Below are positions 3,243 through 19,654 of a DNA stretch of 64,000 bases, one piece after another. Source of the stretch: Planctomycetota bacterium (lineage in GTDB: Bacteria; Planctomycetota; Planctomycetia; Pirellulales; Pirellulaceae); the NCBI GenBank assembly GCA_017303505.1, contig JAFLCP010000005.1, forward strand, positions 1-64,000, in the 5' to 3' direction. Within the stretch, counting starts at the first letter, position 1. Each line of letters begins with the position of its first letter. Below the pieces are notes generated by a model. That model had not been told where the DNA came from. It saw nothing but the letters and a program-made list of their open reading frames with translations, and did no database searches. A program made the translations under genes and the position numbers.

Positions 3243-3333
3243 TCATAACAAGGCGGTCAACCCGAGCGGCGGATCGGGCGTTTTCACAAATCAAAGGTTC
3301 TTGGCCGCCGCCGGGTTACCTTGGCCGTTACCT
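3243..3333 (+). other. attC 4
   Basis: R'' TCATAAC (one mismatch to the complement of GTTATGC at 2741), R' GTTACCT. Confidence 0.85.
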
Positions 3334-3357
3334 GTTCACTGCGGAATTCCCAGATCA

Positions 3358-9107: not shown

Positions 9108-9195
9108 GCATAACCATCGGGTGGACCGAAGCGGCGTTCACGTCCAGCGGGATGGTTGATCGTCCTGTCGCCGCTCGGTCACCTTGTCGTTACCC
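9108..9195 (+). other. attC 13
   Basis: R'' GCATAAC pairs with GTTATGC at 8631; R' GTTACCC. Confidence 0.9.
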
Positions 9196-9793: not shown

Positions 9794-9877
9794 GGGTAAC
9801 CAAGCGTTGAACGCGAGCGGGCGATTACGCCGGTCCTGAAACCATAGTCCAACGCGCCCGCCGCGTTAACGCAGTCG
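9794..9877 (+). other. attC 14, interrupted at its crossover point by the IS element
   Basis: R'' GGGTAAC (9794-9800); arms AGCGTTGAACGC and CGTTAAC intact. The site runs to the G of R' at 9877 and resumes with TTCTCT at 12045 beyond the IS. Confidence 0.85.
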
Positions 9878-9883
9878 ACTATG

Positions 9884-9893
9884 AAGTCCTGGG
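9884..9893. repeat. left subterminal inverted repeat of the IS
   Basis: AAGTCCTGGG; exact complement of CCCAGGACTT at 12024-12033. Confidence 0.85.
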
Positions 9894-10563
9894 ATGTGTA
9901 AGTGGCAGTCACCACTGTTTTTGTTTTTCTTGTGTTTACATCGTTTGATTCACCGTGAGGTGCCTGTAGCTGTAAGCATCGAGTAGGTAAATGGGTTTTC
10001 TGTTACTTCGAGTTGTGGCAAGGATGTTTGATTAGACGACTATTCGAGGTATGAACGCATTTCACTCTAATTGAACCTGTTCTTATCAGGCTACGTTCCC
10101 TCAGTTATCCATGCACGGTTCAAAGCATCTTGGTTCGCACTTGGCTTCCTCGATGATTTTCCGTGTTGGCTCTAGTTCGCTTTAGGCTTCAGTGAGCAGC
10201 GAACTAGTTTCCGAGCGGCTGGCACATTCTTTAGGGCGACGTGTCGAACACTGCAGCGATTCTTGTGCTAATCGGTCCATAAAGTGTTCGTGTCATGGGT
10301 TGTCGGTGCGCAGGTCCGTTGGGTAGTTCTCGTCCTTGTCATTCTTCGTTGTATAAGTTAGTCCAGTCCTTCTGCTTGCTTAATGGTTAGGGATCTTCTC
10401 AAAACGCTTTAGGTAATTCAGTTCGTAAGGGTGCTATTTGTAAAAGGTGTTGAGGTCCGATTCGTTCTTCGATGTTGGTGCATCGGCTAGGCATACTGGT
10501 TGTCCTCTTCACCCAAGTTTAGGCACGGCGAGCAAGTCCGATTCGTTCGTCGATGTCCTAGCA
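9894..10563 (-). ncRNA. candidate bridge-RNA region, IS non-coding end
   Basis: About 670 bp downstream of the transposase stop without a convincing ORF. It contains a 20-bp near-direct repeat, GTCCGATTCGTTC-TCGATG, at about 10455 and 10536, and a perfect 13-bp inverted repeat, CACGGCGAGCAAG (10524-10536) with its complement at 10586-10598, which spans the transposase stop. In the IS1111 group the guide (bridge) RNA is encoded in the non-coding end downstream of the transposase, so this is the expected place. Exact RNA ends cannot be set by eye. Confidence 0.4.
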
Positions 10564-11910
10564 TCAGACAGCCGCTGCTGGCTCTCTTGCTCGCCGTGGT
10601 TTTCGGGGGGTTACGGACTTGTTCCGCATCGAATCTTTCGATTCAAGATGATTCTCGATTTGGGGCTTGTCAGGTCTTTCCTTTGAAGTGCTCTTTTTAG
10701 TTACTTTTTTGGCTACGGCAGTGGCCTTGCTCGACTCTGTGGAAGGATGAGCTTGTTTAGCTTCCCTTGCTTCCTTACGCAGTCTTTTTTTGCGTTGATC
10801 ACTGTTCTCCTTAGGCTTCATCGCATCCAAGACGTCTTGGATCGAGTTTGTTGTTTTGCTGAACGATTTTGTCACCTTGAGCATGTGTGATGGTTTCCAA
10901 TCAGTTTGATCCCGCAGCATGGCCCAAGCTAGAACGGCGAGTTTACGCGCTAAGGCGATAGCGGCTTTCTTCTTACGTGTTTTTTGTTTGCCACAGATAC
11001 GTTCATAAACAGCTTTGGCCCAAGGGTTGTAACGTAAAGACGCCCAAGCACACTCGACGAGGATCGTACGGGCCAATGGGTTGCCACGTTTGGTAATACG
11101 TCCATTGCGATCGGTTTCGCCTGATTGGAATTGACGGGGAACAAGACCGAAATAAGCGGAGACTTGTCTTCCATTTTTGAATCGATGTGGATCATCCAGG
11201 CAGGCGACGAGGATTTCAGCGGTTCGAGGTCCAACACCCGGAATCGTCTGAATCCGTTGGATACGTGAATCCTGTTTACCGGTGGCTTCGAGTTTTTTGA
11301 CAACCAAGTTAAGTTGTTCGCTTAAAGCATCGAGCTGTGTCAATTCGAGATCGAGTTCCCCTTTCCAAAGTTCGTGCGGCTCGCAATCGGCCAGAGATTT
11401 GCGGAAGGAGTTGATGCGTGCTCTTCCTGTGCACCAGGCTTTTTCTCCGGTGTCGATAGCAATTCCATGATTGACGAACCAAGCGCGAATGGTGCATTTC
11501 ATTTTATTGATGCGTTGATCGAGCGTCTTGCGATACTTGACAAGCGATCGAAACTCGCGGTGGGATTCGGAGGGCATGTGCACCGGTTTGAGTTCATCCA
11601 TTGAAGCCATACGAGCCAGCTTAAGCGCGTCGTCTTTGTCGGTTTTTCGTTTCACGTTGGACCATTTCCAGGCATCTTCATTGGTGGAACAAACGATCGT
11701 TTTATGCCCAGCGTTTTGAGCGAGATCGCAGATCCAGCCCGACGGTCCACAAGCTTCCATGACGACGAGATCAATTTTGTGTTTTTTGAAGAGGGTAGCG
11801 AGGAATTGTCGATCGGTGGCGGCGTTAAGGAAGGAGTGCTTTCGGGTTTTGGAGTCAAAGAAGCAGCACATGGTATTGAATTTTCCGAGATCGAGAGCGA
11901 GAATTTTCAT
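10564..11910 (-). CDS. IS110-family transposase (DEDD RuvC-like), 448 aa
   Basis: Start at 11910 (MKILALDLGKF). The longer frame to 12264 would cross the IS end and the next cassette gene. An N-terminal RuvC-like DEDD domain shows D7 (LALDLG), E52 (VVMEACGPSG) and D91/D94 (KTDKDDA). A C-terminal Transposase_20 domain carries the helix-hairpin-helix IPGVGPRTAE and the PRQFQSG serine expected for the Tnp-domain nucleophile. The last 100 residues are an unusual Lys/Arg-rich tail; typical IS110 enzymes are about 330-400 aa. The gene appears intact. Bridge RNA would guide target choice. Confidence 0.93.
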   Translation of the reverse strand: MKILALDLGKFNTMCCFFDSKTRKHSFLNAATDRQFLATLFKKHKIDLVVMEACGPSGWICDLAQNAGHKTIVCSTNEDAWKWSNVKRKTDKDDALKLARMASMDELKPVHMPSESHREFRSLVKYRKTLDQRINKMKCTIRAWFVNHGIAIDTGEKAWCTGRARINSFRKSLADCEPHELWKGELDLELTQLDALSEQLNLVVKKLEATGKQDSRIQRIQTIPGVGPRTAEILVACLDDPHRFKNGRQVSAYFGLVPRQFQSGETDRNGRITKRGNPLARTILVECAWASLRYNPWAKAVYERICGKQKTRKKKAAIALARKLAVLAWAMLRDQTDWKPSHMLKVTKSFSKTTNSIQDVLDAMKPKENSDQRKKRLRKEAREAKQAHPSTESSKATAVAKKVTKKSTSKERPDKPQIENHLESKDSMRNKSVTPRKPRRAREPAAAV

Positions 11911-12023
11911 AGACGTTGTTCCTTGGGTTTGGGGTTGGAATTTGTGACGCGTTGTGTTCCAAGCACAACGCACGATCACGGGTTCGAGTCGCCAGATTTT
12001 ATTCGAAAGACTCCCACCCCAAA

Positions 12024-12033
12024 CCCAGGACTT
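12024..12033. repeat. right subterminal inverted repeat of the IS
   Basis: CCCAGGACTT, complement of 9884-9893; 11 bp from the right boundary. Confidence 0.85.
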
Positions 12034-12095
12034 ACATGGATTCTTTCTCTGGTCCCGTATGTTCATAGCGTTCCGGGAGTTTAAATACACTCGCC

Positions 12096-12543: not shown

Positions 12544-12633
12544 AGAGAACCAAGCGGTGAACCCAAGCCGCCGATAGCATGGTCCCTTACATCAATATCA
12601 ATCGCGGCGGCTGGGTTACGGCTGCCGTTCTGT
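12544..12633 (+). other. attC 15
   Basis: R'' AGAGAAC, extended CCAGAGAAC, pairs with TTCTCTGG at 12045 across the IS junction; R' GTTCTGT. Confidence 0.92.
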
Positions 12634-19564: not shown

Positions 19565-19654
19565 GCAGAACCGAGCGTTGAACGCGAGCGGGCGATCATG
19601 CCGATTTTGAAATCAGAGTCCAACGCGCCCGCAGCGTTACCGCAGCCGTTCTGG
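19565..19654 (+). other. attC 27
   Basis: R'' GCAGAAC (9-base match with GTTCTGCCA at 18965), R' GTTCTGG. CGAGCGGGCGATCATGCC type, like site 14. Confidence 0.93.

What the first reader, a model, noticed from the sequence alone, without database searches (positions are those of the whole stretch)
9878..12044. IS110-family element inserted exactly between G and TT of an attC
Seen: the attC reads intact to the G at 9877, and TTCTCTGG at 12045 pairs with the next R''. Subterminal 10-bp inverted repeats lie at both ends. Known: an IS1111-attC group targets attC sites. The precision matches the integrase crossover point. The insertion separates cassette 15 from anything upstream and blocks recombination at this attC.
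Basis: partly seen in the sequence, partly recalled or inferred. Interest (0 to 1): 0.75.

Follow-up and report, generated by a model that had tools for sequence, protein, structure and literature searches.

The report
Jumping element at integron crossover point
A small jumping gene in planctomycete bacteria inserts at the exact base where the integron's own enzyme joins gene cassettes; it appears to have evolved this aim, probably with a guide RNA, separately from the known attC-targeting elements, which insert at a different spot.

Summary
A 2,167-bp IS lies at 9878-12044 of a planctomycete integron array (about 90 attC matches in 64 kb, all on one strand). Its flanks rejoin into a normal attC with no base lost or gained, and an uninterrupted paralogous attC lies at 19566-19654. 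It is an IS1111-type element: IS110-family DEDD transposase on the minus strand, subterminal repeats ATG(T)AAGTCCTGGG with the family's 7/3-bp extensions, and a long downstream non-coding region holding a covarying RNA. Relatives in Pirellulaceae, and one in a cyanobacterium, show this is the rule: 34 of 34 left flanks end AA, 27 of 29 right flanks start CG, and 24 of 29 right flanks are attC sites cut exactly at G^TT. The interpretation needs correcting. The known IS1111-attC group (ISPa21, ISKpn4, ISPpu24, ISPa62, ISPa25) inserts elsewhere in attC, in the left-hand simple site. Those transposases form a separate clade, and grouping the two is rejected (p-AU about 1e-4). This is therefore a second, apparently independent attC-targeting lineage, aimed at the integrase crossover itself. 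Recognition by RNA is supported by family membership and RNA covariation; individual target-guide bases remain tentative. The block to cassette recombination is inferred, not shown.

The parts
9878..12044 (-). complete IS1111-type insertion sequence, 2,167 bp; transposase gene antisense to the cassettes
   Evidence: Ends identical in position to relatives at many other sites; rejoined flanks give a normal attC
10564..11910 (-). transposase, 448 aa, DEDD_Tnp_IS110 + Transposase_20 domains, with a basic C-terminal tail (about residues 345-448)
   Evidence: NF033542 'IS110 family RNA-guided transposase', 254.5 bits against a cut-off of 140
12024..12044 (-). left end: AGAATCC (7-bp extension) + ATGTAAGTCCTGGG (left sTIR)
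9878..9893 (-). right end: right sTIR CCCAGGACTTCAT + AGT (3-bp extension)
11911..12044 (-). left-end leader with a conserved RNA fold in which the left sTIR region pairs with the transposase ribosome-binding site
   Evidence: RNAalifold on left-end leaders of the relatives; positions
9878..10563 (-). 686-bp non-coding region downstream of the transposase (IS1111-type NCR)
10019..10131 (-). conserved, covarying RNA core (candidate seekRNA/bridge RNA); CCTCGAATAGTCG at 10037-10049 is identical to right end ATAGT plus the CG that follows the insertion
   Evidence: 12 of 28 pairs with compensatory changes, covariation score not reached by any of 500 shuffles; positions
10223..10243 (-). conserved hairpin loop CACGTCGCCCTAAAGAATGTG, tentative left-target guide (..TAA-AG-AAT)
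   Evidence: guide role tentative
9795..9877 (+). interrupted attC, complete up to the G of the R' box
12045..12052 (+). TTCTCTGG: start of the next cassette, rest of the R' box
12545..12633 (+). intact attC of the cassette downstream of the IS
19566..19654 (+). uninterrupted paralog of the interrupted attC (stand-in for the empty site)

Best explanation
This is an IS1111-type, probably RNA-guided insertion sequence of a Planctomycetota/Cyanobacteriota lineage whose usual target is the right-hand end of attC, read along the bottom strand as RYYYAA^CG(N)C(N)GCGATCACC. It joins at the same phosphodiester where IntI exchanges the bottom strand of attC (AA^C, i.e. G^TT on top), without target duplication. 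Shown: the exact junctions, their recurrence at many sites, the family features and a covarying RNA in the non-coding region. Inferred from the family: a circular form makes a junction promoter, the transposase binds an RNA cut from the downstream non-coding region, and that RNA pairs with the target and the IS ends. Also inferred: the insertion replaces TT of the R' box (GTT becomes GAC; bottom AAC becomes GTC) and so should stop IntI using this attC, fixing the upstream cassette in place. This lineage apparently reached attC independently of the known proteobacterial IS1111-attC group, which hits a different part of the site.
For: Family. sTIR with 7/3 extensions. Downstream NCR. No target duplication. 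Target rule: 34/34 left flanks ..AA, 27/29 right flanks CG.., 24/29 right flanks an attC cut at G^TT, with near-identical or identical copies at different attCs. Cyanobacterial relative L017 (Phormidium): its left flank GCATAA is the cassette start whose own attC lies at 3272-3357. Known group at another position. Separate clade, grouping rejected p-AU 9.7e-5. Structured RNA with compensatory changes. RNA segment identical to right end plus CG in nearly all relatives. Sequence rather than whole-hairpin recognition: L077, L079 and L096 sit in sites with GTGA-N8-CG|TT but no attC match.
Against: The element is single-copy in its own genome although at least 150 attCs were scored, so recent activity there is unproven. 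Target-guide assignment is weak: the left-target match is strong in L098 only (1/2000 shuffles), modest in L045 (90/2000), not significant in the window element, and no consistent right-target guide was found. Loss of attC function was not tested. The tree joins deeply diverged proteins, so the independence test shares long-branch risk.
Confidence: 0.82

Rival explanations
1. It is simply a member of the known IS1111-attC group (ISPst6/ISKpn4 type) found in a new host.
For: Same superfamily, same general target (attC), same orientation (transposase antisense to cassettes), same 7/3 end rule.
Against: Insertion point differs: left-hand simple site versus right-hand crossover G^TT. Transposase about 28% identical to ISPa21 over the aligned part; grouping all attC-targeting transposases together is rejected.
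Confidence: 0.08
2. The IS entered as part of a gene cassette, or IntI itself joined it at the attC, so the precise position reflects integrase action rather than the transposase's aim.
For: The position equals the IntI crossover.
Against: Identical or near-identical copies are bare at several attCs, with no cassette DNA or attC of their own at either end; three relatives lie in sites with no attC match (L077, L079, L096) yet with the same AA^CG rule.
Confidence: 0.04
3. The element recognises the folded single-stranded attC hairpin rather than the sequence at its end.
For: 24 of 29 testable sites are full attCs.
Against: L077, L079 and L096 keep GTGA-N8-CG|TT without an attC match; IS1111/IS110 targets are recognised by base pairing to short sequences (PMC11187229, PMC11208160).
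Confidence: 0.15

Closest known systems
IS1111-attC group (ISPa21, ISKpn4, ISPpu24, ISPa62, ISPa25; Tetu & Holmes 2008, Post & Hall 2009)
   Same: IS1111 end structure, downstream NCR, attC target, transposase reads along the attC bottom strand, no target duplication
   Different: Insert in the R''/L'' simple site (CTTGAA^TGAATTGTTAG) instead of at G^TT; distant transposase clade
IS1111/IS110 RNA-guided insertion sequences (ISEc11, IS621; PMC11187229, PMC11208160)
   Same: DEDD transposase, non-coding RNA region, programmable-type targeting inferred
   Different: Unrelated targets; those RNAs are experimentally proven, here only inferred; longer transposase with a basic tail
Group IIC-attC introns (from general knowledge, not tested here)
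   Same: Another mobile element that uses attC as target
   Different: Retroelement with an intron RNA; no DEDD transposase

Membership tests
IS110/IS1111 superfamily | DEDD N-terminal and Transposase_20 C-terminal domains | tested here: met
   Pfam PF01548 52 bits, PF02371 100.9 bits; NF033542 254.5 bits over cut-off 140
IS1111 group | subterminal inverted repeats of 7-17 bp with 7-bp left and 3-bp right extensions | tested here: met
   AGAATCC-ATG(T)AAGTCCTGGG ... CCCAGGACTTCAT-AGT; the left copy carries one extra T
IS1111 group | longer non-coding region downstream of tnp | tested here: met
   686 bp downstream versus 134 bp upstream
IS1111 group | no target duplication | tested here: met
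IS1111 group | NCR-derived RNA bound by transposase; circular intermediate | not testable with these tools
   A covarying RNA is present; binding and circles need the bench
IS1111-attC group | target is an attC site | tested here: met
IS1111-attC group | insertion position in attC shared by the named members | tested here: not met
   left-hand simple site in five named IS, right-hand crossover here
IS1111-attC group | transposase belongs to the same clade | tested here: not met
   p-AU 9.7e-5 against one clade

The most novel reading that the evidence does not exclude
A second, independently evolved lineage of RNA-guided insertion sequences has converged on the exact base pair used by the integron integrase, using an RNA that mimics the R box (RYYYAA-CG), and spans Planctomycetota and Cyanobacteriota, acting as a natural lock on cassette recombination.
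Probability: 0.6. Interest if true: 0.72.

Novelty: new variant of a known kind. Interest (0 to 1): 0.6.

Why it matters
It shows two unrelated recombinases (tyrosine integrase and DEDD transposase) sharing one crossover point, extends attC-targeting elements beyond Proteobacteria to Planctomycetota and a cyanobacterium, and supplies a natural set of guide RNAs with a well-defined target rule, including siblings aimed elsewhere, that makes IS1111 guide decoding testable. Practically, it gives an element whose predicted effect is to freeze a cassette in place.

Tried and rejected
Core-dinucleotide duplication of AG at both ends: rejected for this family, because the excised site would lack the invariant GTT. 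Rfam scan: no hit. Right-target guide by position-weight scan: no consistent location across relatives. 'GGAACG' near the stem as a target guide: rejected, it covaries as a helix. Left-end leader loop as the target guide: variable in the L048/L090 subgroup although their target is constant. Integrase in the host genome: only XerC/D-like proteins and one other tyrosine recombinase found, none over the integron-integrase cut-off. The original Tetu & Holmes paper on the IS1111-attC group was not held and I found no full text giving its insertion position, so the position was re-derived from plasmid records.

Full report
Observation. The window is part of a very large cassette array: a covariance model built from 27 of its attCs finds 92 matches at E up to 1 in 64 kb, all on the plus strand. 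The attC at 9795 is intact up to G9877, the element occupies 9878-12044, and the next cassette begins TTCTCTGG at 12045, complementary to CCAGAGAA in its own attC. All 27 aligned attCs share the ending GTnA..CGTT, almost always with seven bases between; the rejoined site obeys it, and an intact paralog in the same array at 19566-19654 aligns across the junction without gaps.

Anatomy. Read along the minus strand: 7-bp extension AGAATCC, sTIR ATGTAAGTCCTGGG, a 134-bp left end including these, transposase of 448 aa, a 686-bp non-coding region that ends in sTIR CCCAGGACTTCAT and the 3-bp extension AGT. These are the stated hallmarks of the IS1111 family: sTIR, 7/3 extensions, longer NCR downstream of tnp (PMC11187229). 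The transposase matches both IS110 domains and NCBIfam's RNA-guided IS110 model.

Target rule. Relatives came from species genomes and from 397 genomes of the order, 18 with a strong match. Both ends were located in more than 20 copies. All 34 left flanks listed end AA; 27 of 29 right flanks begin CG; beyond this the consensus is CG-N-C-N-GCGATCACC. The attC model ends exactly at the junction (G^TT) in 24 of 29 sites with enough sequence (L081 and L086 are counted although their junctions are one base short and three bases long). The remainder are L077, L079 and L096 (no attC match, but GTGA-N8-CG|TT), L084 (attC-like right flank not scored by the model) and L021. L048 and L049 lie in near-identical attCs of one genome and are not fully independent. 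One genome has 100% identical copies at two attCs (L082, L083) and a third, 99.7%-identical copy (L084); another has 99.8% identical copies at two attCs and one off-site. The Phormidium relative L017 (about 50% identical) has the same left junction, at a cassette start with its own attC; its right end is no longer present, with other transposase-like sequence following (the identity of that sequence was judged by eye). An Acaryochloris sibling, L045, carries the same ends but lies at GAAACC^CGAGATATGG, apparently inside another transposase gene.

Known group compared. ISPa21, ISKpn4, ISPpu24, ISPa62 and ISPa25 were taken from annotated plasmids. With 7/3 ends applied, all are inserted at CTTGA(A/G)^(T/C)GA(A/G/C)TTGTTAG, that is AATTCA^TTCAAG on the attC top strand, in the left-hand simple site. 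The planctomycete elements use the right-hand end, at the integrase crossover. A protein tree separates the two with full support and rejects holding the attC-targeters together; the caveat is long branches. The simplest reading is independent acquisition of attC as a target.

RNA. The NCR of the relatives holds a conserved fold: on 15 distinct sequences 95% of cells pair, 12 of 28 pairs show changes on both sides, and no shuffle of 500 reaches the covariation score. Its 3' loop, CTCGAATAGT-CG, is identical to the right end plus the CG that follows, as the equivalent segment ATATACG is in ISPa21-type RNAs. A second conserved hairpin loop reads ..TAA-AG-AAT in this lineage; L098 carries CGTGATAA-CG, ten bases identical to its own left flank (1 of 2000 shuffles), and L045 carries AAACC-CG, matching its different target (90 of 2000). 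For the window element the match is short and not significant, and no right-target guide could be assigned. Guide assignment is therefore tentative.

Mechanism. Most likely the element moves like ISEc11 or ISKpn4: circle, junction promoter, RNA-bound transposase, insertion without duplication. These steps are inferred from the family. Sites without an attC match suggest that sequence, not the hairpin, is recognised. The consequence for the integron (GTT of R' becomes GAC, bottom-strand AAC becomes GTC) should be loss of IntI recombination at this attC; this too is inference. The whole block between the intact attCs at 9109 and 12545 could still move as one unit.

Verdict. A real, precise and recurrent insertion; a new variant of IS1111-type elements rather than a member of the described IS1111-attC group.

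Noticed in passing
window 11911-12044 (minus strand): The left-end leader of the planctomycete relatives folds so that the left sTIR region (GTCC..GGGTTTGGGG) pairs with CCCCAAACCC..GGA, the transposase ribosome-binding site; ISPa21, ISKpn4 and ISPa25 leaders could do the same (e.g. GACTCTCCC with GGGAGAGT), which may silence read-through translation.
   Followed up: partly
window 1-64000 and other contigs of the same genome: Very large integron array: about 90 attC matches in the window and a capped 150 scored in the genome across many contigs, yet no integron integrase over the curated cut-off was found in the assembly.
   Followed up: partly
window 10564-10880 (minus strand): Planctomycete members carry a 60-100 aa lysine/arginine-rich C-terminal tail absent from the cyanobacterial and proteobacterial transposases compared.
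   Followed up: no
L084 (G246), right end: The right end is partly duplicated in tandem (..CATAGTCGCCTGCAAACCCAGGACTTCATAGTCGCC..), possibly the scar of a second insertion or an excision.
   Followed up: no
L045 2408-3891: A sibling IS in an Acaryochloris plasmid has the same ends but a non-attC target, apparently inside another transposase gene: a natural case of changed targeting.
   Followed up: partly
window 11911-12044, leader motif CCCGTGATC: A conserved leader motif GTGATC is complementary to the conserved GATCAC of the target's right side; in L090-L092 the match is nine bases (CGGTGATCG). Meaning unknown; it is also part of a hairpin.
   Followed up: no
P0001 residues 193-342: Weak match below cut-off to the TIGR-Tas RNA-guided endonuclease model, also seen in the cyanobacterial sibling.
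   Followed up: no
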